From NCBI GenBank assembly GCA_030407005.1, contig JAUDYN010000003.1, positions 4,193,260-4,257,259 of the forward strand: DNA of 64,000 bases, given 5' to 3'. Below, piece by piece: positions 34,103 through 62,361 of this stretch. This stretch comes from Desarmillaria ectypa (Eukaryota > Basidiomycota > Agaricomycetes > Agaricales > Physalacriaceae). Position numbers and translations under genes: made by a program. Every line of letters begins with the position of its first letter. Within the stretch, counting starts at the first letter, position 1. The notes beneath the pieces are model-generated. The model ran no database searches. It saw only the letters and a program-made list of their open reading frames with translations, and was not told where the DNA came from.

Positions 34103-35462
34103 TGATGTGCTTGGTAACGGCGAGTGACAAAAGAATTAGGGAATGGCAATGAACACCAATCACACTAAACCTCTTACTACTCTACACTTAATCACCAATA
34201 TTGAATTTGGGCAGTTTCGAGTACGATGGAAGCACTCTGCAGACTTCAATAATCAAGTACAATTGTCTTTAAGACATTTTATTCGTTACTAGTGAGTTTA
34301 TACAAAGTACTAGTCATACTAGTGGGGTGGGTAAGACACAATTGGATAAGAGTGACTTGGTTTGAGCTACTGCGCTTGTTCTGACTGAAACTGCTTCAGA
34401 CTGGTGGCGCTCTTGGCCCTATACTGCTTCCTACAAGTGATAAACACTTGACTAGTCGCACTCTTGGCTGACTAGTGGCGCTCTTGGCCTAAGGATAAAC
34501 TATAACTCCAAGAACTTTGCTTGAACTAACTTCAAAACACTCCGGACCTTTGCAGGACACAACAGTGACTCTAATGGACTTCAATTCAATGCAATTCTAT
34601 TGGTGACTTAGCGACTATTAATCACTTTGTCGAGGTTAAGCACAAAAGCCTTTAATTGGGGACACCAGTTACTACCAGTGAGGGCTCAACTGTGGGGATG
34701 GCTTGCCTGCTTTGCACAAGTGCCCATCCCACTACTTATATACTACTGAGGCAAAACTATAAATATCATCTGGGTATAGGGTATATTGGTAAGGATTTCT
34801 TGGCTAGTCACGAATAATGGTGAATAATCACACAATAGTCGGTCTAGTCTGTTTTCTTTTCAAATATTCGGTCTAGAGACTCCCCAGTCGGTCTTTCCGC
34901 ACCCTTGGCACAACTACAGGCCCTGGTAACGTGGTTATATGGATATCCAGATATTGGTGCCTGTAACAGCTATCCAATCATGATCGAGGGTGCAGTCCAG
35001 CTCCACTAGCATCGATCATAAGAGATCTATATTGAAATAGTCGGATCTGGGCTCAAGGTTAATCCATTCCTAATTTATTTCTAAGTCCTGTTTCAAGATT
35101 GCCATGTGACTAGTTATCCTGACTTAGGCATTTATGCCCAGTCTGGGCTGCTAGTGACAGAACTTGACGAGATCTGTGTACTCTGCTCCTGGTTTTGGTG
35201 TGCTAGTAGCATCCTTCATTTGCTAGTGGCTGTATTTCACTTAGTCCTGCTAGCATTCGAGTTACTAGTCTGGCCGGCTGGTAGATTTAACCCACTAATG
35301 GTGTTGCATCTAAGTCCTGGCTCTACCAGTTGCTTACTGCTTTTAACTATCAGCTTGAAGCCTCAGCTATAGTCCTCTATGTATCACTAGTATAGGATAG
35401 ATGTGCAATAGTATTGTTACAAAATCGCAAAATCTAGGTGTGAATGCATAGATGGCATATCA
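34103..35462 (-). repeat. Family-2 solo LTR, copy C
   Basis: TGATGTGC at 34103 and GCATATCA at 35462, 1360 bp. The left flank ends ATAACGA, within pol of E. The right flank begins CTGGCC, within unique DNA. The flanks do not match each other but match those of copy D, so the copy is a recombinant. Confidence 0.8.
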
Positions 35463-35970
35463 CTGGCCTGCTTGTCATTACAAGCTAGATATAGGCCAGG
35501 GCATGAAGGTGATATGATATTAGCAAGGGTAGCATGCACACAAAAAATGAGCCCCATTGCTTTAATTTAGAACTTTAGGGATGTCTGCCCTGCATGTGCA
35601 AGCCTTGTGGGCACAAGGTGGTGGATGTTCAGAACAAAGCATGGAAAGCCAACAGATCAATTTCCAGATCCATCTCTGGATGGTGAACAATCTCACCAAA
35701 CCTCTTGGAAATGAATGGATTTTACCACACAAAAAACATAGCTGCTGCAAAACACCAATAGCTCCCAGCTGCTTATCTGTCAATGTGTATTTTCCTAGAG
35801 ACTTCTTTATGTTGGTTTTCACTTGGTAAGCACTAGTTCACTTTCATGAGGTCCCACTCTTTCCTCTACCAAAGCCCACAAAGTATACCTATTTTCTAGT
35901 CGTATAGTAAAATCTGAATACTTGTTTCATCCTACAGAGAGAAGAGCATTGGAAAATTTCCTCCTACTTC
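35463..35970. other. Non-repeat DNA between copy C and the palindrome
   Basis: These 508 bases match no other part of the window and show no retroelement motif. Short ORFs on both strands (82 codons 35581-35829 +, 86 codons 35562-35822 -) overlap one another and resemble nothing I know. A small hairpin, GCTTGT-CATT-ACAAGC, is near 35469-35484. By the C/D flank match, this stretch was once joined to the sequence at 62362 onward, with a family-2 LTR between them. Confidence 0.5.
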
Positions 35971-36329
35971 TGTTACAATTTTTCCGTTATCTTATCTCAT
36001 CCAACATTGATGCATTTACTGACAACCACCCCCATTCTCTTTCACTAGCACCCTCATTTACTCTCATTGGTCTATGATCCACTTGACTTCAACACTGTTC
36101 TCTCATGGACCATACCATTTCATCTGTTAATAATGCTGTACTTTCAGTATATAAGTAGAGTAGTTTTCACCATTGTACTCTACCTTTCAACTAAATTACA
36201 ATCATACACCTTCTACTACACCACACTAAAGACTAAGCTTAACTCTCATTATACAGGTGATTATCTGAATGTGAGACAGCCCAGAGAGAAGCTTATATCC
36301 CAAGTCACATGTTAGACAGGGCTGTAACA
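35971..36329 (+). repeat. 5' LTR of element T1 (359 bp)
   Basis: It begins TGTTACAATTTTTCC and ends GGGCTGTAACA. The first 42 bases differ from the LTR at the other end of the palindrome, and from 36013 onward the two are identical as far as I checked. The bases before it (ACTTC) do not match those after T1's 3' LTR (GAATT), so the two ends of T1 come from different insertions. Confidence 0.85.
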
Positions 36330-36388
36330 TTAGTCAAAAGGTATCCCTCCCACATCTTCTATGCTAGCCATAAAGACACAACAACTCT

Positions 36389-36514
36389 ATGCCTGAGAAC
36401 AACAACAATCAAGAAAACCAACAAACAATCACTCTCAGCATTGCAATCAGTGGTGCTGCACTCCTTATACTTTTCACAGCTCTTCTAGTACTAATGTACA
36501 AAGAAGAAGCATGA
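36389..36514 (+). CDS. ORF0 of element T1: 41-aa single-helix membrane protein
   Basis: This is an intact 41-codon ORF starting 60 bases after the LTR. A polar Asn/Gln-rich N-terminus (MPENNNNQENQQ) is followed by a hydrophobic helix at about residues 15-37 (GAALLILFTALLVLMYKEE) and an acidic end. It is shorter than usual gene-calling limits. P, E, F and G carry relatives at the same position. The TGA stop overlaps a downstream ATG (ATGA), but the conserved gag start is the later MSFP codon. Membrane location is inferred from hydrophobicity only. Confidence 0.6.
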   Translation: MPENNNNQENQQTITLSIAISGAALLILFTALLVLMYKEEA

Positions 36515-36584
36515 GCACTTCTTCACCAAGAAAGGCAACCCCACCATCCACAACCCCCTCCTCACCCACCCTGCTATCCAGACC

Positions 36585-38961
36585 ATGTCCTTCCCAGGAG
36601 GATATCCCCCATCAGATTGGGAACAAGAGAGGAGGTTCCACTCTCATGTCCCTGGGTCAGCTTCAGGGCCCCCTCAACCTCCTTGACCTTCTCAGAGGAC
36701 ACCAATCAGACCTCCACAGGAGCAATTCTTGCAACCTACTGGCTGGAATGATCCACCCCCACTGTAGCAGAAGAATATGCATGAGACAGATGGGCTGAGA
36801 TTGATGACCCCCCCCCCCCCCCCCCCCCCCCCATACTCCCTTCTCCCTCATCCCCATTCCCCTACCCCCGCCTGGCCCTACCTCAGGATCTTACACCCCC
36901 AATGATCCCAGAATGGATCAAAGACACTCCTATAGACCTTGGGCTCAAGAAAGAGATCCTTGGCCCAGAGGGAGCACAGACTCCTCATCCTCGCTCCCAT
37001 CATTGAGCTCTCCTCCTCAGACTCTGAGGGAAGCTCTGATGCTGTGCCTAAGACCACTCCCTTCTGCCCTGATAGTCCCTTCAATCCTGATGGGACAAAC
37101 TGGAATTGGCCCACTCTTGCCACCATTGACCAAGAGATACTCAGTCCCATTGTATCTGCCACCTGGGAACTAAGGCGAGCGGATGTCAAAGCCAGAATGG
37201 CCTGGCCTGAGCATCATCCCAACATAGATGAGTGGCTCACCCTTAACTGGGGTGATCCAATATAGGGACCAAACCCCAATGCCACAATTTGAGCCCAGAT
37301 CCACACAAACAGAAACTGGGAGCTTTATTGCCCTGCCATTGGCAATATGGTACCAGGGCTATGCCCAAGGATGGAAGAGGAATGATGGGAGCTGGGTCAC
37401 TCCCTTTGACAGCTATGGCAACTGGAGCTCACCCAGAGGAAGGAGAATGGACCCAATGTCCAGCTTTAAAGGAGCTAGATATGGGTATGGATACTATGAC
37501 AGGCTGGGACACTCCCAGCTCCAATACATAAACTTTCCTAATTACCCTCCCAACACCTCAGTCACAAGACCAAGACCCCTGCCCAACTTGCCACTCTATA
37601 GTCAGGCATGATAACCCAGCTATCACACCTATCAGGGTGGCAGTCTTCTCTTTGCAGGCATGGGAGAAGACATGGAAGCTGAGAATGCCCCTGCAGGCAC
37701 TATCCCTGCAGAATCATCAAGAACCTCAGCAACAATGGAAGAACTTTGGCAACAGATGAAAACTGTATTGGCAAAAAAGGAAAAACACATCACCAAGATG
37801 CACAAAGAGCTTGTGAAAGAAGAATCTGCCAAGAAGATGATGACAGACTATCTCTGCGATAACAATGAGGAAAAGGAGCCTGACAGGGGCAGACCCACAG
37901 AGCCACCAAGAGGCTACCCAGGTCCAAGGCCAGATCCATTTTGGATCCCAAGACTACCCCCCAGAAAAGGGCCTCCTGACCCTGTCCCAAATCCCATTGG
38001 AAATGTGCCCAATGATGCCTCATATCTGGGCATCAAACTGGTCCTCATCAAGACCCCCAACCCAGTCAAAGGGGACCATGACAATATTGAATGCTTCATA
38101 GGTGATTGCATCATCTACTTTGAAGTGTTCTGGCATTACTTCCAGGTACCATCACACCTGGTCTTATTCACAACCTCTCACTTTGAAGGGGCCACCAAGA
38201 ACTGGTGGGTCTACAAGAGACCTGAGTTCTGGGTTGGTGATTCTTATGATGGCACTGCTGCCCACTTCCACTATCCCACATGGGATGACTTTGTGGACCT
38301 GGTCTCTCATCAGTTCTGAGACCCTGCCATCAAGGAAGTCCATGAGAAACAGATGTTCAACCTTTGAATGAGGATGCAGTCCACCTCCCATTACTTCCAG
38401 AAGCTGGAAGAGGAAGCAAAACTGGCAGGGCAATAAACCAATGAAAACGAGCACAGCACCATGGTGAAGGTGGTCTGACTAGGAGTACCAACCTCCTATA
38501 TGACCTTCATCTCAAATGTGAGCATCAACATTCTGCACTCATATCTGGAATGGAAAGATTGCATTTCATGAATGTATGAAGAGTGCCAATGCAAGTGGGT
38601 CTTTGATCAGACCACCAGTATGCCCTGGGATGGGCAGAAGAAGGACTCCTGCCCCAATCCCCCACAGCACCCCAGCAGCAAAGCTGCTGCTGGGGCAACA
38701 AGTTCCTCAGCTCCAAAGCTGACTGCTAACATGGGAGTGAGTCAGGATGCTGGAACTGGTCAGTGGATGACATATGGAGGGGCAGGAAAGCCCATGGAGA
38801 TTGATCAATGAAAGGCAGAAGGTAGATGTTTCTGCTGTGATGAGAAAGGTCACATGGCAAAGGACTGTCCTAGGAGAAAGGACTTCAAGGACCTTTGATC
38901 AGTAGGGCCCACTAATGAAGTGATGCCACCTATGACCAAGATCAAGGAGGCAAAAGACTAG
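36585..38961 (+). pseudogene. Gag of element T1, decayed
   Basis: It starts MSFPGGYPPSDWEQE. A 25-base poly-C tract (36808-36832) follows within the proline-coding stretch. The N-terminal frame includes WPTLATIDQEILSPIVSATW (about 37095-37155). The frame moves +1 near 37330-37384 to NDGSWVTPFDSYGNW. The 219-codon section 37660-38319 holds a coiled coil (EELWQQMKTVLAKKEKH) and the capsid-like domain. The knuckle has C-F-C-C-D-E-K-G-H-M-A-K-D-C (38827-38868), with Cys in place of the usual Arg. It ends with TAG at 38959-38961. Several TGA and TAA stops occur. Confidence 0.85.
36808..36832 (+). repeat. 25-base poly-C tract in T1 gag
   Basis: An uninterrupted run of 25 C lies in the gag N-terminal region, where P has only a short C-rich stretch. 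The matching tract in T2 has 28 G. The length is likely unstable, or uncertain in the assembly. Confidence 0.9.
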
Positions 38962-38970
38962 GTCAACAAG

Positions 38971-38996
38971 GGTTCGATTCCCCTTGCTCGACCATG
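38971..38996 (+). other. tRNA T-arm-like motif at the gag-pol boundary (T1)
   Basis: GGTTCGATTCC is an exact match to the tRNA B-box consensus GGTTCGANTCC. It can form a T-arm-like stem (AAGGG with CCCTT) and is followed by GCTCGACCA, resembling a tRNA 3' acceptor strand plus CCA. The last A belongs to the pol ATG. It starts 9 bases after the gag stop. No complementary 5' acceptor strand or A box is evident upstream, so it is a half-tRNA mimic rather than a gene. Confidence 0.6.
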
Positions 38997-41900
38997 TCTC
39001 CTGGTGGTGAGTCCTCAGCTTCCGTGGGTCAGACTGAATATTATATACACAGACATTTTATTATGCCAAAAATACATACAACTGGGTCACAGTCACCAAA
39101 GCTAAAGAATGCCAAAGAATCGAATACAAACAGGTATGTCACACTCCTGAAAGAAACTGACACAGTAATCTATAGTGAATCCTGATCCCCCAATGAGGTG
39201 CAGGATTTGCCAGGTGGTGCTGGCACTGCCATGAAGTCCACTGAGTCTACCTCAGTAGACTTACCAGATACACAGGTAAAACCATGGACTGGGGCAAGTA
39301 GGTGGAACATCCTTGGACCTTCCAGAAGTCCAAATGCTCCTGAGCCCCCTACAAGTAGGAGGACAAGTCCCACAACCTCACCATGGTTGGTGGGGGAGAT
39401 AAGTGCCTACAAAGGCCAGGATTGGGGCCACATGCTACCTGATCCCATTGGGAGAAACTTAGTGGTGGAACCGACCACAATGCTGATAAGATTCACACCT
39501 GGTACCATGAGTCAGTACTCCATCCAAACAGGTAGTAGCAGAACCCCAGAAGCATCAAGCCAAGTCCTATCTCCTTCCAAGATAGTTCAAGTTCTGAAAG
39601 CAACTCAAGCTGAAGAACAGAGGGAAGCCACTAGTGCCCAGGTGGTAAAAAGGGGGCATCCGAAGGACCTGAAAGTTTGGCTGAGCCTGGCAAGACCTCA
39701 GTCTAGCTCCATCAAGAAAAGTGCTAACCAGGGACATGGTAGCAAGCCCCCTGACTCAGAGGAGAAAGTGTCGGTTGAGCTGCCAGTACCAGCAGATCCT
39801 GAAACTGACAACATGGAATGAATGCCAGCTTCGATGGTCGATTCCCAAGTAGGAATCAGTGTTGACATCCCTGGAGATCGGAGTGCAACTGCCTATTGCC
39901 CATTGCTGGTAGCACTCACAACAGCTGTAGGACAGGAAGCCACTAGTGCCCAGGCAGTAAAGAGGGGGCACAACAGCAGAAACACCACTATTGTCAAAGT
40001 ACCTGATGAAGAAGATGACATGGCTTTCCTACAATGGAAAGCAAAACAGTCCAAAGCCAGGACCCCGATAACCAAAATCCTGCCAGTCATGGGGGTACTC
40101 AATCATGTGTGATATAAGCCCTTTGGAGTCGACTGGACTCTACATGCTATTTGTACCATCAAGAACTTGGCAGTCACCAAAGCAGTCCTCTCCACTTGGG
40201 TACATTCCAAATGACTTGGAGAAATCACTGATGAGCTCATTCAGAGCTTGAACACTGAAGAGAGCTCTGCGCATGAGCAGCTCTATGAACTGCATGAACC
40301 AATCTGGTATATCCATGGTACCATGAGTTCTGGCCAGGACTTCTTGGTGGATATCCAACTTGCTCCCTGCACAGGGAAACAGACTTTGACAACCTGTGCA
40401 TTGTTGGATAGTGGCTGCATGGGCAGCTCTATCAACAGAACCTATGTCCAACAACACCAGTTGGATACCAGAAAAGCTGCTACTTCTATACTTATTTACA
40501 ATGCAGATGGAACCCATAATAAGGCAGGAGATGTAACCGAATTTGTGGAACTCTGAATGACCATTGGAGATCACATTGAATGAATCGACCTTGCAGTCAC
40601 AGACTTGGGCTCCAAAACAGTGTATTTGGGCCATGACTGGCTTAAACACCATAACCCACTAGTCAATTGGAAAACAGGATCAATGACATTCAGACAATGT
40701 CATTGTATCAAGAATTATTTCACTCTCCCCAATTCAGATGAAGAGGACAGATGGGATGAAGAGCTTGAAGAAGGCAAAACGATTCTTGTGGTAAACATGC
40801 AAGAAGAAATCATTCTTCAAGCTGTACATCACACAAATGAACTAGCGGCTGCTGCAAATGCAGAAAAACCCAAGAAGACTTTCAAGGAGCTGATGCCTCC
40901 TCAGTATCAAAGTTTCAGAGACTTGTTCTCCAAAGAAAGCTTTGATGAGCTACCAGATTGGAAACCTTGGGATCATGCCATTGAGTTGACTCTCAATGCC
41001 AAATCCATGCTAGACTGTAAAGTCTATCCACTCAATCAAAACAAACAGGAACAACTCAACAAGTTCCTTGATGAGAACCTCGACTCCAGATGAATTTGTC
41101 CATTCAAATCCCCTTTTGTGTCCCCCTTCTTCTTTGTCAAGAAAAAAGATGGTTTGCTGTGCCCCATTCAGGATTACCAAAAACTGAATGAAATGACAAC
41201 AAAGAATCAATATCCACTCCTGTTGATATCAGAACTCATCAACAAACTACATGGAGCCAAGTACTTCTCCAAACTGGACGTCCAATGGGGATACAATAAC
41301 ATACAAATCTGTGAGGGAGACAAAGAAAAAGCCACATTCAGAACCAACCGAGGACTCTTCAAGCCCACAGTCATGTTCTTTGGCCTTACCAATTCACCAG
41401 CCACTTTCCAGTGGATGATGAATGACATCTTTAAGGACCTGATTGCTGGAGGAAAAGTTACCATATACCTTGATGATATCCTGATCTTCACAAAATCCAT
41501 GTCAGAACATCAAATCATTGTTCAACAAGTTCTCCAATGACTACAAGAAAACAAATTGTTCCTCAAAGCAGAGAAATGCGAGTTTGAAGTACTCAAGACA
41601 GAATACCTTAGAGTGATTATCAGCAAAGATGCAATCCACATGGATCTGGTCAAAATCACTGGAATTTCAGAGTGGCCCACTCCAACCAAAAAGAAGGAGC
41701 TCCAATCTTTCTTAGGATTCATGAACTTTTACCAAAAGTTCATATGCGACTACTCCAAAATAGTACAACCTCTCATGCAGTTGACTGGCAAGGTCAACTG
41801 GACATGGGGAGTGGAACAAGAACAGGCATTCTCACAACCCAAGAAGTTGATGACCATGAATGTAGTTCTAATGATTCCCTCTGACAATGGGAAATTCTGA

Positions 41901-44040
41901 GTAGAAGCTGATGCTAGTGATGGAGCCATCAGAGCTGTTCTAAGCCAAGAACAGAATGGCAAATGGAGGCCAGTCGCCTTCATGTCAAAAGTGCTGACAG
42001 TCACTGAACAAAATTACAAAATCTACAACAAGGAATTGCTGGCCATTATGTTGGCTTTGGAGGAATGGTGCCATTACCTCATGGGCACCAAGGAAACCAT
42101 TGAAATCTGGACAGATCATCAAAATCTCCACTACTTCCAAAAACCCCAGAAGCTGAATCAATGACAAGCCCGATGGGTTACTGAGTTGGCTGAATACCAC
42201 TTTGTTCTTCAACACAAAGCTGGAGTCACGAACAAAAAAGCCAACCTTCTCAGCCAAAGAGATGATCACAATCAGGGAAAAGAAGACAATCAAGACATGA
42301 TTGTTCTTTCTCCTGAACACTTCTGGGCATTAATACTGCCCACCACTGAAGAATGAGTTATGCGTATAAGAGATGCAACTCGACAATGAGAACAATGGGA
42401 CCAGGGGATTGAAAAATCTCTTAATCATGAATGAGGGATCACTCAAGAAAATGAAGTATTGTGGTATGACGGACGCATCTACATTCCTCAAGACACCTCA
42501 CTTTGCAGCAAGATCATTGCACAATATCATGATCACATCACTGCAGGACATCCTGGCATAGCCAAAACCAAGGAACTCATTCTATGAGAATATTGGTGGC
42601 CAAAGATGAAAAGAGATGTTGAATCCTATATCAAAGGATGCAAAACATGCCAGTGGATGAAGAGTAATACACAGGCAAAGGCTGCTCCTCTTCATCCCAA
42701 CACAATACCTGATGCTCCCTGGACTCATATCTCAGTTGATATGGTCACCAGACTTCCGGAATCTGAAGGATTTGACGCTTTACTCATCATTGTGGATTGA
42801 TTCTCCAAAAACATAATCCTGATTCCATGCAATGAAGAATTATCCACAGAAGGATGGGCTCTCATGCTCCAAAATCATGTTTATGCAAAACACAGAATGC
42901 TGCAAGTGATTATCTCAGACCGGAGTCCCCAATTCATATCAACATTCATGAAGGAACTCTATCGGATGCTGAATATCATGCAGAATGCATCCACTGTATA
43001 TCACCCACAGATGGATGGACAGACAGAGTGGGTCAACCAAGAGGTTGAAAAATACCTCTGAATCTTTATCAACCATCAACAGACAGACTGGGTAGCATGG
43101 TTGCTACTTGCAGAATTCACTCACAATAACCGAATTCATTCAGCAACTGGCAAAAGTCCCTTCATGGTCTTATATGGATGAAACCCTCAACTCATCCCTG
43201 AGTCCATCCAAAAAACAAGTTTCACAAATCCTGCAGCAGTAGAATTCACAGAAACCATGGCCAAAGTCCACAAGGAAGTCCATGACACATTGGAGAAAGC
43301 AGCAGTGCAAATGAAGGCACAATATGACACAAGGAAACAATCATCTCAAGAATATCAAATCAGTGACAAGGTATGGCTCGACACTGTCAATCTTCATCTC
43401 CCACATCCAAAGAAGAAGCTCGACGATAAACAAACTGGACCATTCAAAATTATTGAGAAATCTGGTATGGCAGCATACAAACTGAAACTGTCACCTCATT
43501 GGAAAATACATCCTCAATTCAATGAAAAATTGTTGACTCCATATATTATGCCCTCTTTCCCAAATCAGCAACAACCACTGCCTCCTCCTCCAGACCTCAT
43601 TGATGGTCAAGAAGAGTATGAAATTGAAGAAGTTTTGGACTCACACACTCATCGAGTATGCTCCAAATGAGGACAACTGTCTAAAGAAGTCACAGACTAC
43701 CTAGTCAAGTGGAAGGGATGGACCAGAGAACACAACTCTTGGTTCCAAGAAACAGAAATGTTGAATGCTATGGATGTAATTGAAGAATACAAGGCTAGCA
43801 TAAACCACACCTTATACATTCCAAAAATCATAACCAAAGACAATAGTGGTCAAGATACTGGACCATGAATACTCCAAAAGTGGCAAGGTCACATATCTTG
43901 CTCAATGCAAGGATGGATATCAAAAATGGATCATCAACCCAGATGAGAAGGCATGGAAAAACTTGATTGATCAGTACTGGATCAATCAAGTCATATCACA
44001 ACTTGACACCCCTGAAGAAGAGCCTGAGCAGTCGGGATGA
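38994..44040 (+). pseudogene. Pol polyprotein of element T1 (complete length, decayed)
   Basis: The ATG (MSPGGESSASVGQTE) is 33 bases after the gag stop, in a different frame from gag. Then come two AQ(A/V)VKRG linker motifs (about 39628 and 39938), TIVKVPDEEDD, and protease L-L-D-S-G-C-M-G-S-S (DSG 40407-40415). Reverse transcriptase has Y-L-D-D (41466-41477), followed by RNase H (about 41900-42160). Integrase has its zinc region ending G-C-K-T-C-Q near 42650 and a DDE core with V-I-I-S-D near 42910. The chromodomain is at about 43613-43763 (V-K-W-K-G-W), and the protein ends in PEEEPEQSG. About twenty in-frame TGA codons, mostly at expected Arg CGA sites, disable it. It ends nine bases before the polypurine tract. 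Confidence 0.9.
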
Positions 44041-44048
44041 CTGCTTTA

Positions 44049-44060
44049 ACAAGGGGGTAA
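44049..44060 (+). other. Polypurine tract of element T1
   Basis: ACAAGGGGGTAA lies directly before the LTR start at 44061, as in Q and E. Confidence 0.8.
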
Positions 44061-49707: not shown

Positions 49708-49716
49708 CTTGTTGAC

Positions 49717-52166: not shown

Positions 52167-52292
52167 TCATGCTTCTTCTTTGTACATTAGTACTAGAAGA
52201 GCTGTGAAAAGTATAAGGAGTGCAGCACCACTGATTGCAATGCTGAGAGTGATTGTTTGTTGGTTTTCTTGATTGTTGTTGTTCTCAGGCAT
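52167..52292 (-). CDS. ORF0 of element T2: 41-aa single-helix membrane protein
   Basis: Mirror copy of the ORF at 36389-36514, intact and identical. Same polar N-terminus and hydrophobic segment ending LLVLMYKEEA. Confidence 0.6.
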   Translation of the reverse strand: MPENNNNQENQQTITLSIAISGAALLILFTALLVLMYKEEA

Positions 52293-52351
52293 AGAGTTGT
52301 TGTGTCTTTATGGCTAGCATAGAAGATGTGGGAGGGATACCTTTTGACTAA

Positions 52352-52746
52352 TGTTACAGCCCTGTCTAACATGTGACTTGGGATATAAGCTTCTCTCTGG
52401 GCTGTCTCACATTCAGATAATCACCTGTATAATGAGAGTTAAGCTTAGTCTTTAGTGTGGTGTAGTAGAAGGTGTATGATTGTAATTTAGTTGAAAGGTA
52501 GAGTACAATGGTGAAAACTACTCTACTTATATACTGAAAGTACAGCATTATTAACAGATGAAATGGTATGGTCCATGAGAGAACAGTGTTGAAGTCAAGT
52601 GGATCATAGACCAATGAGAGTAAATGAGGGTGCTAGTGAAAGAGAATGGGGGTGGTTGTCAGTAAATGTGTCAATGCTGACTGAGATAAGATATATAGTG
52701 TTATGGATATGATGAGATAAGATAAGATAACAGAAAAATCATAACA
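52352..52746 (-). repeat. 5' LTR of element T2 (395 bp)
   Basis: On the minus strand it starts TGTTATGATTTTTCTG at 52746. Its first ~78 bases differ from T1's LTR, including a segment (ATATCCATAACACTATATAT) absent there. It is preceded on the minus strand by GAATT, inside integrase codons of S. Confidence 0.85.
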
Positions 52747-53772
52747 AATTCAGCAAGCAGCAGCCAATTACTCCAATTGTCCTGATAATGGTTTATGAAG
52801 ATTCAGAGGTACTTTTTGATTTCTTGGTTAACCTATTTGGTCTGTCCATAGGTCTGCAGATGATACATGGTGGATGCATTTGGGGTAATATCTATCATCT
52901 GGTATAGGTCTTTCATGAATTTGGAGATGAATTGGGGACCTCAATTAGAAATAATGACTTAGAGCATCCTATATTTGATGTATATGTGATCTTGGAGAAT
53001 GCATGCCCATCCTTCCACAGAGAGTTCTTTGTTACAGGTGACAGGGATGATTGACTTTGAGAATCTGTTGATGATTACTAGCAGAGTGTCATAGCTATCG
53101 GACTCTGGAAGTCCAGTGACCATATCAACAGATATGTATGTCCATGGTTTGGTGAGGATGATGTTTGGGTGCAGTGGTGCTGCCTTTGCTTATGTACTGC
53201 TTTTAGTATACTGGCAGGTTTCACATCCTTTGACATACACTTCTACATCTTTCTTTAGTTTGGCCACCAATATTCCCTAAGCATGAGTTCTGTGGTTTTT
53301 GTGATACCAGGATGACTAGCAGTGATGTGGTCATGACTGTTGGCAATGATTTTGCCCCATAAGGACTCTTTTCTGGGTATGTAAATATGCCCATCATAGT
53401 ATAACATCCTATCTCACTCAGTGATACTGCATTCATGATCAAGTGATATGACAATACCTTGGTCCTATGCTTTCTTCTGGCATGTGGTGTCCTGAATTTT
53501 CAAATACTCCTCTGTCACTGTTGGCATGATGAGGGTATGGAAATTCTCTGATTGAAGGACAACAACATCATGATTGTCTTTCTTGTCTTGATCATGATCA
53601 TTGTGTTGGCTGAGTAAGTTGGCCTTTTTGTTTGCAGTCCCTGGTTTGTGCTTGAGAGTGAAGTGGTATTCAGTGAGTTTGGTAACCCAACATGCCTGGT
53701 GGTGGTTCAGCTTCTGGGGTTTTTGGAAGTACTAGAGATTCTGATGATCTGTCCAGATTTCAACCTCTTTGG
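52747..53772 (-). pseudogene. RNase H-integrase fragment of element S (left part)
   Basis: Reading downward from 53772: P-K-R-L-K-S-G-Q-I-I-R-type RNase H end (the WTDHQNL region, frame broken), then the integrase zinc domain (ITASHPGITKTTELMLREYW near 53290) and the DDE core (about 52900-53130), ending at LLLAEF. It is interrupted at 52747 by T2; the continuation is 44425-44844 on the plus strand. It has many stops. The upstream end abuts a third-family LTR. Confidence 0.8.
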
Positions 53773-54453
53773 TGTAAGGCTGACAAACTCTCTGGTGAGA
53801 GAATTACAGTTTGCTTTTGCAAGATCTTTGGTATACAGTAAGTATTCAAGGAGATGCAAGAACCACCTTCTTCAGATCAGTAAGAATCCACTTCAGATAG
53901 CAGAGAAGAGCAAAAGAGTGGGACTCAATATCCTTTCAAGAGATTTGGGTTTTGAGAGCAATTTCTGAGTGATAGCAATGAGCTTCCATGCTGTCTGCTA
54001 GCAATACTAGGCACAAGGCTGCTAAAGTATGCTAAGCTGGAGGCTTGAATAAGGAATTTATTCCTTTAGTATGCTATGAGCTTGATTGATTATTCTCTAG
54101 TTACATTGGTGTTTTTATACTTCTCCAACTTCTTACCCCTATACCTGTCCCCTCTGAAAATCTTGCCAAGTAGTGACCTGCTCCATCATGTCCACCTCTT
54201 TTTACACTCCTAAATGATTCTCCTAAGGGAAAACCATATGGTATCACCATCCTTGATGATATTAAGACAGAGGTGTGGGCTTCCACTGGCAGATGATAGT
54301 GCAGATGGCAGTCCATTGTCCTCTGACCTTCATTTCCTTCATTTCTAGTGGATCCTAGTCCTGTATTCCTGTTAACTGAGCAGGTGGTTGTTCTTAGTCC
54401 TGTGGCTTAGCAGAAGCCAAAATTTGGTGCACACATATATGTGGTGTAGCACA
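53773..54453 (-). repeat. Third-family solo LTR (681 bp)
   Basis: On the minus strand it begins TGTGCTACACC and ends GTCAGCCTTACA, so it has TG...CA ends. It contains a likely TATA box (GTATAAAAAC near 54110-54120) and an AATAAA signal (GGAATAAATTCC near 54050). It occurs once in the window. The flanks (CTTGG and CCAAA) do not match and belong to two elements in opposite orientation (H and S), so it also sits on a rearrangement junction. Confidence 0.6.
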
Positions 54454-54706
54454 CCAAGACAATGCTGGGATGGTGCTACCCTATCCCAACAGCCCTTATG
54501 GGCCACTGGAATTCACATCAAGATTCCCAACCTATCCCTGAGGGTGTCTTCCCCCACCTGAACTCTGGCCCACCAATGAGGAGAGTAGTGACTCCAGCTC
54601 CTCACTCTCCATCATCAAGCTCTCAGATGATGCCCCATCCACTCTCACCCCCCAAGCTGATGATGACCCCCTTAACACCTGAGGCCTCAATTATGAGTGG
54701 CCAGAG
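54454..54706 (+). pseudogene. Gag of element H, first piece
   Basis: It reads DNAGMVLPYPNSPYGPLEF and continues to LNYEWPE, resembling the F gag N-terminal region (YEWPDLNNADQ). One TGA is in frame. It is cut by a solo LTR at 54707 with CAGAG as target duplication. Confidence 0.7.
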
Positions 54707-55128
54707 TGTTATGATTTTTCCACTTTTCATCTCTATGTTATCTTATCCAATCCTTTATCTTATCAGATCTCCATCTCATCAGTCCTATTATCTGATCCCT
54801 TATCCAACATCAGACTTCCAATACTCATGGTTACCTGGTGTAACACTGCACCATATTCTCACTATAGTTGCATAATGGGCATGCCATCTTTCTTGTTTCT
54901 TTCATGGACATCTCATGATTATCAGTATATATTTAACCTCACTCTAGTATATAAGTTGGGTAGTTTACACTGTATACTCCCCATCTTTCAACTAAAGTTC
55001 ATTTCTATACCACCTCTTCTCCACAAAGATCAGAAGACCATAGTCATACCCTTTGAGTGATTGTCCAAATGTGAGACAGCTCATAGGAATATGCATGTCT
55101 GCAGATCATGTGGAATGTGGGTCTAACA
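54707..55128 (+). repeat. Solo gypsy LTR in H gag (422 bp) with target duplication CAGAG
   Basis: It begins TGTTATGATTTTTCC and ends GGGTCTAACA. It is flanked by CAGAG at 54702-54706 and 55129-55133. No internal region is present, and gag coding continues on both sides. It has TATATAAG near 54950. It arose by recombination between the two LTRs of a once complete insertion. Confidence 0.9.
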
Positions 55129-56712
55129 CAGAGCTCACCAATGCCAATCAGGGAATCCTTGGACAATTCTGAACTGAGGCCTGGGAAATCTAAAGACAAG
55201 ATGTCAAGGCCAGAACTCTCTGGCCAGGGATCTATCCTGATATGGATGAATACCTCACCCTCAACCAAGGGAATCCTATTTGACCTCCCAGTATTAATGC
55301 TACCATACACATCTGGATACATGCCAACTGGGACCAACATCTGTACCCTCCATTGGTAAGAGATAGACTACCTGGACTACAACCAAGGACAGCCAAGGAA
55401 CAACAAGACCTGGAGCTCACTCTCCTGGTCCTTGCCCATAAAGAGGGAGACTGCTTGGACCTCAATGGTCAGAGGTTACAATTCTACATTCGATAATTTT
55501 ACATATGATTACTGCAGCTACCAGAGATGGGAATCATACTCATCCCAATATAACTCCTCTAATCCATATGATTACCCACCTGATACCCCTATAAACTACC
55601 CATGACCCCTCTCTGACTCACCATTATCAATCAGCCAAATTCAGCAGCACAATTCTTATCCTCATTCAGGGAGAAGCTTCTTATTTGTAGGAGCAGGTGA
55701 AGATCCCAGCAGAAGTATGACACCACTGGATCCACCACCACTAACCTGAGAAGAATGCCTCCAGCAGGCCAAAGAAGAATTGGTCCAAAGAGACCAGAGA
55801 GTCAAGGCAGTCATGCCATGATTTGGCAGTTCCTCATCAAAGAGAAACAACTGGACCAGGAATGCCCCTGGAACCTGCCTCCTGACCTATCCCCCTGACC
55901 TGATCAATACCTCATTCTGCACCTGCCCCCCAACCAAGCACCCCCCAACCCCATCCTCAATCCAGTAGGTAACACACCCAATGCTGCACCATGCCTCAAT
56001 ATCAAGCCTATACTAGTACAACCCCTGAAGCCCTTTAAAGGTGAGCACAATAACATTGAGTGATTTATAGGTGACTGTATTGCCTACTTTGAGGTCTTCT
56101 GACACTACTTCCAGCTGCCCTTGCACCTGGTACTATTTGCTACCTCACACTTTGAGGGAGCTGCCAAGGACTGGTTGGTTTACAAACATCCTGAATATTG
56201 GGTGTCAAACAGAAACACTGGTGTTCACACCTATTTCTGATATCTAGGATGGGATGACTTGATGGAACTAGTTACTCAGCAATTCCATGATCCTGCTATC
56301 AAGAAGGTCCATTAAAAAAAATATTTGACCTCTGCATAAGGACTCAGCCAGACAGTTACTACTTCCAGAAGCTGGAAGAAGAGGTGAAACTCACTGGATG
56401 GTGCACTAATGAGAATGAATGCAGTGCCCTGGTAAAGGTGGTATAACTAGGAGTTCCAAGCTCCTATATTTCCTTCATTTCTAATATGGACATCAATATT
56501 CCATGCACTTATCCCAAATGGAAGGAGCATATCCTCTGAATGTATAAAGAGCATCAATGCAAATGGATCTTTGACCAAACCATGGGGGCCCCACATGATA
56601 ATCAGCAATGAGATGACTGCCAACCTCAACAGAACCCCAGTAGTAAGCCAACTGCTGGGGAAACAAGTTCATCAATGGCCAAGCTGGCTGCCAATACCGG
56701 GATGGGTTATCC
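55129..56712 (+). pseudogene. Gag of element H, second piece
   Basis: It continues DMDEYLTLNQGNPI and RTAKEQQDLELTLLVLAHKE. The frame then moves +1 near 55470 (YNSTFDNFTYDYCSYQRWE). Later come QFLIKEKQLDQE and the capsid-like domain (FKGEHNNIE, YFQLPLHLVLFATSHFEGAAKDW, about 56030-56280). There are many stops. It ends just before the knuckle, in AKLAANTGMG, where it is fused tail-to-tail to element G. Confidence 0.8.
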
Positions 56713-58254
56713 CCCTTAAAAGGTTTTGGAGGTTGTATGAGAATGGGTTTTATGCCTAAATAAGATGCTTCATCAGGTGTGACCCCAACTGGATTTGGGT
56801 AAGGGTCAGGAGAGGCTTGTCCAGGGGGCAGGTACAGGATGGAGTATCGATTCAGTTGGGTAGGTGGTTCTTTCAGAGCTTTCCAGGGTTGTCCTCATTC
56901 TGGTTGTTTTCCTTTGATTGGGAATTGCCATATATTAGTGTAGATGTCTCTCTGGGTCTCAGCCTCCTGAAGTTCTTGTCAGAGTTCCTCAACCCTTCAT
57001 TCCTTTTGGGCCAATTGTTCTTTGGCTTGTTGGATTTGTTCTTCTAGGGTAGGTTGGGGTAGGTCTATGGCTCTTGAACTGGTGCTGGGGTCTTCTCCCA
57101 CTCCTGTGAATAGAAGACCTTCTTGTTGACCTGGATAGAAGCTGGATTGCTGGATATTGCTGATCAGACCCTGTTAATGAAGGATATCAGTCAGGGGCAG
57201 TAACATGCTTATGTCAGCTATAAGGGGTGGGGAGTTGGGAAGAGGTTGCAGATAATAGGTTAGAGTGTCTGGGAGATATTTATACTGGGAAAAAATAGTG
57301 TAATTGGGCTGGATTGTTTTCAGCCTAGGATTTCAGCCTCAATTATACATAAAACTATTAAATTGATTGATCTTGACCATCAAGGTCAGATTGATTCATC
57401 TCCCTTCAGGCAAGAACCAAAAGGGCTTGCTCCAATTCCTGCTGCTCCTCTGCTGTCCTGATGCATAGGCTGGGTACCCTATCCCCTGTGGAGAGGGGGT
57501 AGAGGCTGTGGTCCCTGTTGGCATGTATAATGGCTCTAGCACCAGGTCTATGGATTGGGTCCTCTCTATTGAGGGCAAGATACTCATTCATGTCAGGATG
57601 AATATCTGGCCAGAGGATTCTGGCCTTGATGTCAGCTCTTCAGAGTTCTCATGCTTCACCTCTGAAGGGGCTGAGGATGGCTCAGTCTGCATCAATGAGT
57701 TCCAGCCACTCATAATCAGGGCTATGGGGATTGAGAGGGTTATCAGAGTTTTGGGGAATGGGCAGGAGCATGGAGTTGTCAGAGAGCTCAATGACAGGGA
57801 GGGAGGAGCTGGAGTTGCTCTCATCACTCTTGATGGGCCATGAGATACATTGCTGTCCTTGGGATGGTGTTCCCCTGGTTGCCTAGAGGCCATAAGGATG
57901 ATGAGGATGGGATATCACTATCCTGGCATTGTCTGGGTGTTATACCCTTGCATGCACTGGGCATGCAGGCATGTAGGGAGGGGGGTCTGAGAATTGGAAC
58001 CAAGTCCATATGCTCCACATGTATTCTTCCATGGTGGTGGGTTGTTCCACCCTTGGCTGGTTTAGAATTTGAATGGGTTCTATCCTAAGTGGAAACTTGT
58101 CAGAAGACTGGGCTGAGAAGCCAATGCAGTTTCTTGAGGGGTTTTCCTCTGAAGAGGGTGTCAGACTCACAGGATCTAGCCCTCTGGTGTTTGTTCATTG
58201 GGGGATGACATGCTGTAGGGGAAGGGAAGGTGTTTGGGAGCATAAAATACATTG
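56713..58254 (-). pseudogene. Gag of element G, decayed, 3'-truncated
   Basis: Reading downward: an N-terminal region after ORF0, then EYLALNREDPIHRPGARAII and RTAEEQQELEQALLVLA (57406-57591). A +1 change near 57350 gives FNSFMYN, followed by GLLFTGVGEDPST, a coiled coil (LEEQIQQAKEQLAQKE, about 57040) and the pre-capsid stretch (EASYLGIKPILIQPPKPFK). It stops at about 56713 just as the capsid-like domain begins. There are several stops and frameshifts. Confidence 0.75.
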
Positions 58255-58386
58255 TCAGTGTAGGTAGCATTGAATACATTCTCCCCAGGTGAAGAAAATG
58301 AGAGTGGTAAAGAAAAAGACTAGAATAGCCTCATCTATGGCAGTGCTAAGTGCAACAGTTTGTTGTTTGTTGAAGTCTGGGGTCAT
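58255..58386 (-). CDS. ORF0 of element G: 43-aa single-helix membrane protein
   Basis: This is an intact 43-codon ORF, 60 bases after the LTR. N-terminus MTPDFNKQQTVALS, then a hydrophobic helix with aromatic residues (AILVFFFTTLIFFTWGE) and CIQCYLH. It matches F ORF0 in length, position and the FFFTxLIFxTWGE pattern. The TGA stop is followed after two bases by an ATG. An overlapping earlier ATG (MKKPNPYDP) in another frame soon hits a stop. Confidence 0.55.
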   Translation of the reverse strand: MTPDFNKQQTVALSTAIDEAILVFFFTTLIFFTWGECIQCYLH

Positions 58387-58445
58387 ATGGGTTTGGTTTC
58401 TTCATGGCAAGCAATGAAGAAACTATGGGAAATCTTCAAACTAAT

Positions 58446-58847
58446 TGTTAGACCCACATCTCACATGATCTGCAGACTCATGCTTGATTCCTTTGGGCTG
58501 TCTTGCATTCAGACATTCACCCATGGATAGCAGCTATGGTCTTTCAATTGTGAGGAGAGAGTGGTATAAGATAAACTTTAGTTTGAAGATGGGGTAGTAC
58601 ATCAAGGGCTAACTAGCTTATATATGTGAATTGAATAGCTAAGAATAGATGTTTTTATGAGTAATCCTTACTAGAGACAAAGAGAAAAGTATGCTGGGTG
58701 AGCAACCATCACTAGCCATGAATATAATAATCAGGTACCACATTATTATGGGCCAGTGTGTCTGGTGATTGCCATGGATACAGAGGGTGAGGAGGATCCA
58801 TTATTGATAAGATAAAATAAGAAAAGAAAGGGGTAAAAATCATAACA
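58446..58847 (-). repeat. 5' LTR of element G (402 bp)
   Basis: On the minus strand it begins TGTTATGATTTTTACC at 58847 and ends GTGGGTCTAACA at 58446. It is inserted in integrase codons of F. The flanking CATGA (complement of 58848-58852) is the likely target duplication. Its partner is not in the window because G is truncated. Confidence 0.85.
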
Positions 58848-58852
58848 TCATG

Positions 58853-60349
58853 AACCTTGAAATGAACTGGAGACCTCAATCAGAAATGATAACTTGGAGC
58901 ATTCCATGTTTGGCATATATATGATCCTGAAGGATTCATGCCCATCCTTCTGCTGAGAGTTCTTCATTACAGGTGATTGGAATTATTGTCTTATAAAACC
59001 TGTTGACAATTATCAATAGGGCATTATAACTATTGGATTCAGGGAGTCTGGTGACCATATTGACCAAGATGTGGGTCTAGGGCTCGATTGGGATAATGTT
59101 CAGGTGTAATGGTATGGCCTTAGCCTGCATGCTGCTCTTGGTGTGCTGGCACATTTCACATCCCTTGATGTATCTTTCTGTGTCTTTCTTCAGTCTTGGC
59201 CACTAGTATTCTTGGAGAACAAGCACCACAGTTTTGGCAATACCAGGGTGGCTGGCAGTGATGTGGTTATGGCTTTTGGCTATAATTTCATCATGTAAGG
59301 ATTTGTTTCTTGATATTAGATATGCCCATTGTAGTGTAGTACCCTGCCTTCCTGGGTGATGCCATATTCATGGTTAAGGGATCTGATGATACCTTGGTCC
59401 CATAGTTCCTTCTGATATGTAGCATCTTGAATCCTGGAATGCTCTTCTGGCATTGTTGGTAGAATGAGGGCTCAGAAATGCTCTGGCTGGAGGACAATCA
59501 TGTCATGGTTGTCCTCTTTGCCTTGATCATGATCATTGCATTGGCTGAGTAGGTCAGCCTTTTTATTTGTGACCCTGGTTTATATTTGAGGATGAAGTGA
59601 TACTCAGCAAGTTCAATGACCTAGCAAGCCTGGTGATGGTTCAACTTCTGAGGCTTTCAGAAATATTGGAGATTTTGATGATCTGTCCAAATTTCTACAT
59701 CTTTGGGGTTGCCCATAAGATAGTGACACCACTCTTTGAGGGTGAGCATGATAGTGAGTAATTCCTTTTCATAAATCTCATAGTTGCATTCTGTTACTGT
59801 TAGGGCTTTGGACATGAATACAACTGGTCTCCATCTATCACTCTGGTACTGACTAAGTACCATGCTGATCACTCCATTGCTGGCATCAGCTTCTATCATG
59901 AATCTCCCATCATTGGTTGGGATAGCTAAGATTATATCCTCTGTCATTTGCTTTTTCAGTGCAAAAAATGCTTGTTCTTGTGCTTCCTCACATTTCTATT
60001 TGGCATTACCTATAAACTGAGTAAGGGGTTTCACAATTGTTGAATAGTCATGTATGAACTTGTAATAAAAGTTGGTGAAGCCTAGGAATGACTGGAGTTC
60101 CTTCTTCTTGGTTGGAGTTGGCCATTCTGTGATTTCCACAACCTTGACTGGATCCATTCATACTGAGTCCTGGCTGATGATGATGCCTAGGTATTTAGTT
60201 TCTAAGACCTTGAATTCGCATTTCTCTGCTTTAAGAAACAGTTTATTTTCTCATAGTCACTGGAGGACCTGGCATATGACCCTTTGGTGTTCATCTAGGT
60301 CTCTTGTGAAGATTAGGATGTCATTGAAATAGATGATGGTCTTCCTTTC
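58853..60349 (-). pseudogene. Pol of element F, displaced portion (RT palm to integrase)
   Basis: Starting at 60349 the codons read ERKTIIYFNDILIFTRDLDE, the exact continuation of F's reverse transcriptase cut at 26255. The catalytic Y-L-D-D is Y-F-N-D here, so this copy was dead. RNase H follows (IPTNDGRFMIEADASNGVIS, about 59890) and WTDHQNLQYF (about 59660), then the integrase zinc region (about 59150-59330) and part of the DDE core. G is inserted at 58853 within QVIISD...QFIS. The rest of F is not in the window. Confidence 0.88.
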
Positions 60350-60771
60350 TGTTAGGTACCACCTTGAGCACGTGACTTGGGACATCAGCTGATCCCTCTG
60401 GGCTGTTACACATTCGAACAGTTACCCAATGTGAGAGATAGAAGCTTTCAGTCTTCTGTGTAGTGTGAGTAGGGAGTATATGATTTAAGTTTAGTCAAGA
60501 GATAGAGTACAACTATGTAGTTTACTCTGTTTATATACTATTTCTATGGCATTATATATAGATGAAATGCTAGAGTCCATGTATAAACAGTGTTGAAGTA
60601 TGTTGGTCCAGGAGGATCATACAACCAATAGAAAGTGTCTGGAGTGACAGAAGGTGAGAATGAGGGTAGTAGCCAGTGAGTAGCTGGATATGAGTCAGAA
60701 TCATTGCTAGATTAGATGGATGAGTCATAGATATGACTTGGATAAGATAAGATAACGGAAAAATCATAACA
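60350..60771 (-). repeat. 3' LTR of element E (422 bp)
   Basis: On the minus strand it runs from TGTTATGATTTTTCCG at 60771 to GTACCTAACA at 60350. It has the same length as the LTR at 26256-26677 and is very similar to it. It is preceded by E's polypurine tract and followed by the second GAAAG (complement of 60345-60349). Confidence 0.92.
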
Positions 60772-61011
60772 TTACCCCCTTGTTAAAGCAGTCATCCTGA
60801 CTGCTAAGGTTCTTCTTCTGGGGTATTGAATTGTGTTGCGATTTGACTGTCCCAGTACTGGTCAATTAGTTTTTTCCATACGTTCTCATCTGGATTGATA
60901 ATCCACTTGGTATATCCATCTTTTCATTTGGTGAGGTATGCTACATTGCCATGTTCCGAGTATTTGTGGTCTAGGATTTTGACCACTGCTTTGTCATTCG
61001 TTGATATGCCA
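60772..61011 (-). pseudogene. Pol C-terminal tail and polypurine tract of element E
   Basis: Reading from 61011: N-D-K-A-V-V-K-I-L-D-H-K-Y, then KWIINPDENVWKKLIDQYW and a stop at 60792-60794. The tract AACAAGGGGGTAA precedes the LTR. It continues in frame the pol frame cut at 34102. One TGA replaces an expected residue near 60925. Confidence 0.88.
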
Positions 61012-62361
61012 TCTATGCATTCACACCTAGATTTTGCGATTTTGTAACAATACTACTGCACATCTATCCTATACTAGTGATACATAGAGGACTATAGCTG
61101 AGGCTTCAAGCTGATAGTTAAAAGCAGTAAGCAACTGGTAGAGCCAGGACTTAGATGCAACACCATTAGTGGGTTAAATCTACCAGCCGGCCAGACTAGT
61201 AACTCGAATGCTAGCAGGACTAAGTGAAATACAGCCACTAGCAAATGAAGGATGCTACTAGCACACCAAAACCAGGAGCAGAGTACACAGATCTCGTCAA
61301 GTTCTGTCACTAGCAGCCCAGACTGGGCATAAATGCCTAAGTCAGGATAACTAGTCACATGGCAATCTTGAAACAGGACTTAGAAATAAATTAGGAATGG
61401 ATTAACCTTGAGCCCAGATCCGACTATTTCAATATAGATCTCTTATGATCGATGCTAGTGGAGCCGGACTGCACCCTCGATCATGATTGGATAGCTGTTA
61501 CAGGCACCAATATCTGGATATCCATATAACTGCATTACTAGGGCATGTAGTTGTGCCAAGGGTGCGGAAAGACCAACTGTGGAGTCTCTAGACCAAATAT
61601 TTGAAAAGAAAACAGACTAGACCGACTATTGTATGATTATTCACCATTATTCGTGACTAGCCAAGAAATCCTTACCAATATACCCTATACCCAGATGATA
61701 TTTATAGTTTTGCCTCAGTAGTATATAAGTAGTGGGATGGGCACTCATGCAAACCAGGCAAGCCATCCCCGCAGTTGAGCCCTCACTGGTAGTAACTGGT
61801 GTCCCCAATTAAAGGCTTTTGTGCTTAACCTCGACAAAGTGATTAATAGTCGCTAAGTCACCAATAGAATTGCATTGAATTGAAGTCCATTAGAGTCACT
61901 GTTGTGTCCTGCAAAGGTCCGGAGTGTTTTGAAGTTAGTTCAAGCAAAGTTCTTGGAGTTATAGTTTATCCTTAGGCCAAGAGCGCCACTAGTCAGCCAA
62001 GAGTGCGACTAGTCAAGTGTTTATCACTTGTAGGAAGCAGTATAGGGCCAAGAGCGCCACCAGTCTGAAGCAGTTTCAGTCAGAACAAGCGCAGTAGCTC
62101 AAACCAAGTCACTCTTATCCAATTGTGTCTTACCCACCCCACTAGTATGACTAGTACTTTGTATAAACTCACTAGTAACGAATAAAATGTCTTAAAGACA
62201 ATTGTACTTGATTATTGAAGTCTGCAGAGTGCTTCCATCGTACTCGAAACTGCCCAAATTCAATATTGGTGATTAAGTGTAGAGTAGTAAGAGGTTTAGT
62301 GTGATTGGTGTTCATTGCCATTCCCTAATTCTTTTGTCACTCGCCGTTACCAAGCACATCA
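61012..62361 (+). repeat. Family-2 solo LTR, copy D
   Basis: TGATATGC at 61012 and GCACATCA at 62361, 1350 bp, same orientation as A. Its left flank (outer bases TCGT, complement ACGA) matches the left flank of C. Its right flank CCGG matches C's right flank CTGG. It carries three copies of a GCCAAGAGNGNNACNAGTC unit at about 61976-62066. The TATATAAG box is near 61720. Confidence 0.8.

What the first reader, a model, noticed from the sequence alone, without database searches (positions are those of the whole stretch)
34103..62361. A 25.5-kb inversion between two family-2 solo LTRs, proved by swapped target duplications
Copies C (34103-35462, minus) and D (61012-62361, plus) are inverted relative to each other. 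Their own flanks do not match. Cross-matched, they do: E pol ending ATAACGA before C pairs with ACGAATGAC beside D, and CCGG beyond D pairs with CTGG beyond C. Inverting 35463-61011 makes E's pol continuous in frame (K-I-I-T then N-D-K-A-V-V-K), brings E's two 422-bp LTRs into a normal element, and rejoins F's reverse transcriptase. Three independent element structures are repaired by a single inversion. This is direct evidence of LTR-mediated ectopic recombination between solo LTRs.
Basis: seen in the sequence. Interest (0 to 1): 0.88.

Follow-up and report, generated by a model that had tools for sequence, protein, structure and literature searches.

The report
Inversion between two inverted solo LTRs
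Two copies of the same jumping-gene end repeat, lying in opposite directions near a fungal contig end, appear to have recombined and flipped the 25.5 kb of DNA between them, and a second contig still shows the unflipped order at one of the breakpoints.

Summary
The inversion holds up. Their flanks match only crosswise (ACGA/ACGA, CCGG/CTGG), which alone is weak: about 1 such pair in 861 is expected by chance. Four further lines agree: E's inverted LTRs, 33.7 kb apart, are mutual best matches with a perfect crosswise duplication (GAAAG); E's pol halves map to adjoining positions on relatives; F's pol halves do too; and contig C1 carries breakpoint 2 uninverted, with a single CCGG and no LTR. 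C and D are identical over LTR positions 1-590, with 14 of 15 differences in 591-897, as homologous exchange would leave. The window holds two more inversions. Among 50 copies, identical runs of 500 bp or more (threshold set after seeing the data) occur in 7 of 15 inverted same-contig pairs within 100 kb, 0 of 10 direct pairs of different elements and 0 of 1198 others. A second swapped pair lies on contig C13. Retrotransposon-mediated inversion is known from primates: a well-supported new case of a known kind. Misassembly was not tested with reads.

The parts
34103..35462 (-). LTR copy C (left breakpoint), family-2 Ty3/gypsy solo LTR, 1360 bp
   Evidence: element orientation from primer-binding-site-like and polypurine flanks of other copies
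61002..62361 (+). LTR copy D (right breakpoint), inverted relative to C, 98.9% identical
35463..61001 (.). inverted segment, 25,539 bp
34099..34102 (+). ACGA, target duplication; partner is 60998-61001 read on the minus strand
60998..61001 (-). ACGA, partner of 34099-34102
35463..35466 (+). CTGG, target duplication with one CpG transition; partner is CCGG at 62362-62365
   Evidence: the single CCGG of the empty site on C1
62362..62365 (-). CCGG, partner of 35463-35466
26256..26677 (+). LTR of element E, preceded by duplication GAAAG (26251-26255)
60350..60771 (-). other LTR of E, followed (minus strand) by GAAAG (60345-60349)
30404..34102 (+). E pol, left part
60772..61001 (-). E, right remnant of the internal region
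24894..26255 (+). F pol, left part
58848..60349 (-). F pol, right part
62362..64000 (+). sequence beyond D up to the contig end, 95% like the end of contig C1
35463..35970 (-). sequence beyond C; on C1 it directly precedes the homologue of 62362
35988..43833 (+). left arm of near-perfect palindrome (element E', second copy)
44845..52693 (-). right arm of palindrome (element E', first copy, inserted in G; its LTR starts at 52746)
43834..44844 (+). palindrome spacer: 3' end and LTR of E' plus right part of G; flipped relative to G's left part (duplication GAATT at 44425-44429 and 52747-52751)
2567..3875 (+). LTR copy A, partner of B in a second, smaller inversion
5509..6868 (-). LTR copy B; A/B cross-match ATGG/ACGG at one junction (other: TCAG/CCAG, unlike at one base); an older LTR is split 2433-2566 / 5213-5508 (minus)

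Best explanation
Two family-2 LTRs sat in opposite orientation about 25.5 kb apart, one inserted in element E at ACGA and one in sequence near the contig end at CCGG. Homologous recombination between them, with associated gene conversion, inverted the DNA between them and exchanged their flanks. Shown (on the assembly as given): the inverted order, both breakpoints inside the LTRs, the ancestral order at breakpoint 2, and shared identical tracts within C and D. Inferred: that a crossover between sister or intrachromosomal copies did it, and that both LTRs were already solo at the time.
For: Crosswise duplications ACGA/ACGA and CCGG/CTGG. E's two inverted LTRs with perfect GAAAG and mutual best-match status. 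E pol adjacency on E' and H; F pol adjacency on J and order on E', E and H. LTR-free uninverted homologue of breakpoint 2 at the end of contig C1: 62362-64000 matches at 95%, 35970-35465 at 94%, abutting at one CCGG. C/D: 0 differences in 1-590, 14 in 591-897, 1 in 898-1360, against means of 20.0, 11.8 and 12.1 over 779 other pairs; such clustering in 0 of 20,000 simulations; run-length test p 0.0028. Genome survey: runs of 500 bp or more in 7 of 15 inverted pairs within 100 kb, 0 of 10 direct pairs of different elements, 0 of 1198 others. A second swapped pair on C13 (CCGA|CCGG with CTGG|CCGA, 4 differences in 1361).
Against: No reads were available, and the window ends 1.6 kb beyond D at the contig end. 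The second duplication is 3 of 4 identical. The 4-bp cross-match alone has a chance expectation of about 1.2 pairs in 861. C/D differences do not let parental haplotypes be phased, so the crossover point is not located. Of four inverted pairs newly fetched as a prediction, only one reached the 500-bp threshold; the others had runs of 428, 249 and 93 bp, of which the first two still had p below 0.01. The C13 pair lies on a 37-kb contig. Consensus polishing of near-identical repeats could in principle make false identity; why it would favour inverted neighbours is not obvious.
Confidence: 0.9

Rival explanations
1. Misassembly: the assembler joined the flanks of two near-identical 1.36-kb repeats the wrong way round, so the chromosome is really uninverted.
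For: C and D are 98.9% identical and inverted; the segment holds a 99.9% palindrome with 7.8-kb arms; D lies 1.6 kb from the contig end. The second swapped pair, on C13, lies on a 37-kb contig, so the same doubt applies there.
Against: 33 of the 40 complete copies listed lie on contigs of 1.97 Mb or more (lengths), so the assembly mostly carries on through repeats of this length. The clustered differences between inverted neighbours suggest that exchange between inverted copies does happen here.
Confidence: 0.07
2. The exchange occurred between full-length family-2 elements, which later lost their interiors and became solo LTRs.
For: Full-length copies exist: C23:692004-702493 has PBS-side and PPT-side flanks, LTRs 99.5% identical and ACGG on both sides. 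A full-length copy on C7 has unlike outer duplications ACGC/TCGG and shares an 823-bp identical run with an inverted solo LTR 71 kb away.
Against: Needs two further deletions; C and D carry no internal sequence. Not excluded.
Confidence: 0.2
3. Break repair or replication template switching unrelated to LTR homology, with breakpoints falling at the LTRs by accident.
For: The palindrome's inner junction 44844/44845 joins unlike sequences, so non-homologous joins seem to occur in this region.
Against: Both breakpoints lie within the 1360-bp LTRs with flanks exchanged to the base, and the LTRs share long identical tracts.
Confidence: 0.03

Closest known systems
Retrotransposon recombination-mediated inversions between human and chimpanzee (PMC2603318, passages read)
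   Same: Inversion between inverted retrotransposon copies; breakpoint elements become chimeric and their target duplications no longer match; ancestral state read from duplications and comparison
   Different: L1 and Alu in primates, not LTR elements in a fungus; here the comparison is a paralogous contig end, and nested elements give extra evidence
Non-allelic gene conversion among human LTRs (PMC4921805, passages read)
   Same: Conversion tracts between dispersed LTRs
   Different: Maximum tracts there 14 to 450 bp; here identical runs (not the same measure) of 590-1360 bp in seven inverted neighbour pairs, two of them with fully swapped duplications
Human Y palindrome P6 (PMC3723533, abstract and outline read)
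   Same: Inverted arms kept over 99.9% alike by gene conversion, with rare inversions
   Different: The 7.8-kb palindrome here is built of retrotransposon copies, and its spacer is flipped relative to the host element of one arm
Ty1-mediated gross rearrangements in yeast (PMC3102749, passages read)
   Same: Homologous recombination between dispersed LTR elements; inversions named among Ty1 outcomes
   Different: The passages seen treat translocations, dicentrics and duplications in a genetic assay; Ty1 is copia-type (recalled)

Membership tests
Retrotransposon recombination-mediated inversion | Homologous repeats in opposite orientation at both breakpoints | tested here: met
   C and D, 98.9% identical, inverted
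Retrotransposon recombination-mediated inversion | Own target duplications mismatch, crosswise ones match | tested here: met
   ACGA/ACGA; CCGG/CTGG with one CpG transition
Retrotransposon recombination-mediated inversion | Ancestral uninverted order seen elsewhere | tested here: met
   Breakpoint 2 on contig C1; for breakpoint 1, relatives of E and F
Retrotransposon recombination-mediated inversion | Inverted order confirmed on DNA molecules | not testable with these tools
   no reads or strains available
Ty3/gypsy LTR retrotransposon (family 2) | TG...CA LTRs in a direct pair with PBS and PPT flanks and matching duplications | tested here: met
   C23:692004-702493: LTRs 99.5% alike, PBS-side and PPT-side flanks, ACGG duplications; that these flanks are PBS and PPT is inferred from position and purine content
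Ty3/gypsy LTR retrotransposon (family 2) | RNase H upstream of integrase in pol | tested here: met
   RT_RNaseH_2 at 205-305, Integrase_H2C2 at 545-601 in one frame of L024; no reverse-transcriptase family was reported for that piece
Solo LTR (C and D) | One LTR without internal sequence between matching target duplications | tested here: met
   No PBS or PPT flank; duplications match after the exchange is allowed for
Gene conversion between repeats | Identical tract with sharp edges in otherwise diverged repeats | tested here: met
   C/D p 0.0028; 9 of 14 testable inverted pairs within 100 kb at p below 0.01 (the 15th has no differences); 1 of 10 direct pairs of different elements (A/D) and 1 of 2 direct same-element pairs (L031/L056); 3 of 200 control pairs

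The most novel reading that the evidence does not exclude
Inverted pairs of this LTR within about 100 kb form flip-flop units: they convert each other repeatedly and sometimes cross over, so that the orientation of whole transposon islands is fluid and may differ between nuclei or strains, while direct pairs rarely show such tracts.
Probability: 0.4. Interest if true: 0.6.

Novelty: new member of a known kind. Interest (0 to 1): 0.45.

Why it matters
It is an unusually complete case: two nested elements, crosswise duplications, conversion tracts and an unoccupied uninverted site agree on one inversion. The genome survey turns it from an anecdote into a testable pattern, exchange between inverted LTR neighbours on one chromosome. 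It also warns that LTR divergence and mismatched duplications in such regions cannot be read as simple insertion ages.

Tried and rejected
Chance match of the 4-bp duplications was considered seriously: a random left/right flank pair matches in 8.4% of 1722 cases when CG, TG and CA cores are treated as one, so the duplications alone were not accepted as proof. The idea that family 2 is a non-autonomous inverted-repeat DNA element (nearly all first hits are 1359-1361 bp, with near-mirror ends TGATGTGC/TGATATGC) was dropped when PBS-side and PPT-side flanks and a full-length copy with gypsy-type domains were found. Similarity of inverted neighbours through simultaneous insertion is disfavoured for the pairs whose differences are clustered; it remains possible for the fully identical C3 pair, which that test cannot judge. 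A/B: the right junction does not abut on relative E' (39772 against 37981), so only the left junction of that inversion is established. C7 pair (L017/L031): the predicted outer flank CCGG turned out to be TCGG, so it counts as suggestive only. Of the seven long-run pairs, only C/D and C13 show a full duplication swap; A/B shows it at one junction, and the C3, C6, C29 and C7 pairs do not show it in full.

Dropped before the survey counts: seven partial family-2 hits, several cut by the end of a fetched locus. Checked later: of the 6 inverted ones, 2 (L041: 1 difference in 294 bp; L023: 23 in 734 bp, run 251) have their complete neighbour as closest of 50 copies, 4 do not; the 1 direct one does not. 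Not every neighbour seen was fetched. The survey is biased: the search scores about 40 of some 518 candidates per query, the 10 extra copies were picked because they pair with or lie near others, the 500-bp threshold was set after seeing the first 40 copies, and pairs sharing a copy are not independent.

Paper searches without any hit. Passages were read of PMC4921805, PMC3102749, PMC7251063, PMC2672092, PMC2603318 and PMC10787394; of PMC3723533 abstract and outline; of all other papers only the listing. Hydrophobin matches (24 places) and DNA-methylase matches (4 places) were sought only to place the organism (that hydrophobins are fungal is recalled) and to make CpG decay plausible; methylation itself was not tested. 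Of 5 window frames scanned with Pfam, 1 matched (RNase H), 4 had no family.
Full report
Setting. The window is the last 64 kb of contig C23 (positions 4193260-4257259) of a 40.6-Mb, 32-contig genome. It holds many nested, decayed gypsy-like elements. Hydrophobin-like matches at 24 places suggest a fungus (that hydrophobins are fungal is recalled).

The LTR family. C and D belong to a family of 1360-bp repeats with TG...CA ends. Forty complete copies were collected first and ten more later. Of 50 copies, 4 have a shared flank that looks like a primer-binding side and 4 a purine-rich flank. C23:692004-702493 is a full element: its LTRs are 99.5% identical, it has ACGG on both sides, and its interior carries RNase H then integrase domains. 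So the repeats are Ty3/gypsy LTRs and C and D are solo copies. The target duplication is 4 bp with a CpG core: 51 of 92 outer flanks have CG, 20 CA, 20 TG and 1 AG, against 1.9% CG dinucleotides in 62,700 bases beside the copies. CG to CA or TG is the expected decay of methylated CpG (established knowledge), so CCGG/CTGG is an ordinary decayed duplication. Of 42 solo-like copies, 12 have identical duplications, 23 match when decay is allowed (these 12 included), and 19 do not match.

The inversion. C reads ACGA|CTGG and D reads CCGG|ACGA in the same orientation. Among 861 solo pairs only C/D and one pair on C13 match doubly crosswise with both own pairs unlike. About 1.2 would be expected by chance, so this is supporting evidence only, although both pairs found are inverted neighbours on one contig. 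Stronger: E's LTRs at 26256-26677 and 60350-60771 are inverted, mutual best matches (97%, next 92% and 91%; 40 of 777 and 40 of 764 candidates scored), and share GAAAG at their outer edges only if the segment is read inverted. E's left part ends at E' position 43834, and its right part, read inverted, continues from there; relative H gives the same picture. F's left part ends at position 14259 of relative J and its right part, read inverted, starts at 14257; on E', E and H the two parts follow in order with gaps.

The empty site. The sequence beyond D (62362-64000) is 95% like the end of contig C1, and the sequence beyond C (35970-35465, inverted) is 94% like the stretch just before it; on C1 the two abut at a single CCGG with no LTR. 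This shows directly the uninverted, pre-insertion order at breakpoint 2, on a paralogous contig end.

Trace of exchange. C and D differ at 15 sites; 14 lie in LTR positions 591-897, none in 1-590, one in 898-1360. The 779 other pairs of the first 40 copies average 20.0, 11.8 and 12.1 differences in these parts; clustering as tight as 14 of 15 in 307 bp arose in 0 of 20,000 simulations. With differences redistributed by site variability, a run as long as 590 has p 0.0028. Long shared tracts with sharp edges are what homologous exchange leaves.

A wider pattern. In the first 40 copies, identical runs of 500 bp or more (a threshold set after seeing them) occur in 6 of 10 inverted same-contig pairs within 100 kb, 0 of 8 direct ones and 0 of 762 others. 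I then wrote down a prediction for six new pairs. Of 4 inverted pairs, 1 reached 500 bp and the others had runs of 428, 249 and 93; of 2 direct pairs, 0 did (169, 123). By the run-length test 3 of the 4 inverted and 0 of the 2 direct new pairs have p below 0.01. Over all 50 copies the counts are 7 of 15, 0 of 10 and 0 of 1198; Fisher p 0.020 for inverted against direct, 8.5e-15 against others. Two direct pairs that are the two LTRs of one element were set apart: L024/L055 (run 650, 6 differences, p 0.12) and L031/L056 (run 296, p 0.003). In the run-length test 9 of 14 testable inverted pairs and 1 of 10 direct pairs (A/D) fall below 0.01, with 3 of 200 control pairs. Seven partial hits were left out of these counts; 2 of the 6 inverted ones, and not the 1 direct one, are closest to their neighbour. 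The C13 pair (C13:11150 and 17785, on a 37-kb contig) has 4 differences and fully swapped duplications, hence a second probable inversion of this type.

Other inversions in the window. A and B are inverted, share an 827-bp identical run, and split an older LTR (2433-2566 and 5213-5508) crosswise with ATGG/ACGG; their other junction (TCAG/CCAG) does not abut on a relative and is not explained. Inside the inverted segment is a palindrome, 35988-43833 against 44845-52693, identical but for five mismatches near the start and a C-run of 25 against 28. The first E' copy has GAATT before its 5' LTR (52747-52751, minus) and GAATT after its 3' LTR (44425-44429, plus), and the two parts of its host element G abut on E' at 43117 / 43113. 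So the 1.0-kb spacer is flipped relative to the right arm, as recombination between the arms would do; an assembly error in so perfect a palindrome cannot be excluded.

Comparison. Inversion between inverted retrotransposons, with ancestral state read from unlike duplications, is described for primates (PMC2603318, passages); conversion among LTRs is reported or proposed for human, plants and a fungus (PMC4921805, PMC7251063, PMC10787394, passages); arm conversion with rare inversions for the human Y (PMC3723533, abstract). The case is therefore a new member of a known kind. The bias towards inverted neighbours is the part that most deserves follow-up, with the caveat that direct pairs that cross over delete themselves and so are under-represented.

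Limits. No reads, strains or relatives were available. The time order of solo formation and inversion is open. Frame continuity of pol was not examined. Pairs in the survey share copies and are not independent, and the copies were chosen by similarity to three queries.

Noticed in passing
family-2 flanks genome-wide; 92 outer flanks of 50 copies: The 4-bp target duplication is CpG-centred (CG, CA or TG in 91 of 92 flanks; background CG 1.9%), with no strong preference in the 11 bp outside it (74 half-sites): a gypsy element that appears to integrate at CpG.
   Followed up: partly
35988-43833 and 44845-52693: Near-perfect 7.8-kb palindrome of two gypsy copies whose LTR starts differ; its spacer is flipped relative to the host element of the right-arm copy.
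   Followed up: yes
43833 against 34099-34102: The palindrome arm ends within 1-2 bp of the position homologous to the LTR target site in E. Coincidence or shared fragile site; unexplained.
   Followed up: no
2567-3875 and 5509-6868: A second inverted LTR pair with a crosswise-split older LTR; the right junction joins non-adjacent parts of a gag-pol relative (39772 / 37981 on E').
   Followed up: partly
L057, L058 (C13:11150-12510 and 17785-19145): Inverted pair with swapped duplications (CCGA|CCGG, CTGG|CCGA) and 4 differences in 1361 bp: a second probable LTR-LTR inversion, on a 37-kb contig.
   Followed up: partly
L012 (C3:91644-95602): Two inverted LTRs 1.2 kb apart that are 100% identical over 1360 bp; one has a PPT-side flank, the other is solo with CCGA on both sides.
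   Followed up: no
L031/L056 (C7:26447-36964) and L017 (C7:97999-99358): Full-length element with unlike outer duplications (ACGC, TCGG); its left LTR shares an 823-bp identical run and ACGC with an inverted solo LTR 71 kb away.
   Followed up: partly
L041 (C1:483715 and a partial copy about 3 kb away): A partial inverted neighbour differs at 1 of 294 bases from the complete copy, the closest of 50: a further candidate for exchange.
   Followed up: no
36808-36832 and 51846-51873: Long C/G homopolymers (25 and 28) inside the palindrome arms; their length difference may be a sequencing error.
   Followed up: no
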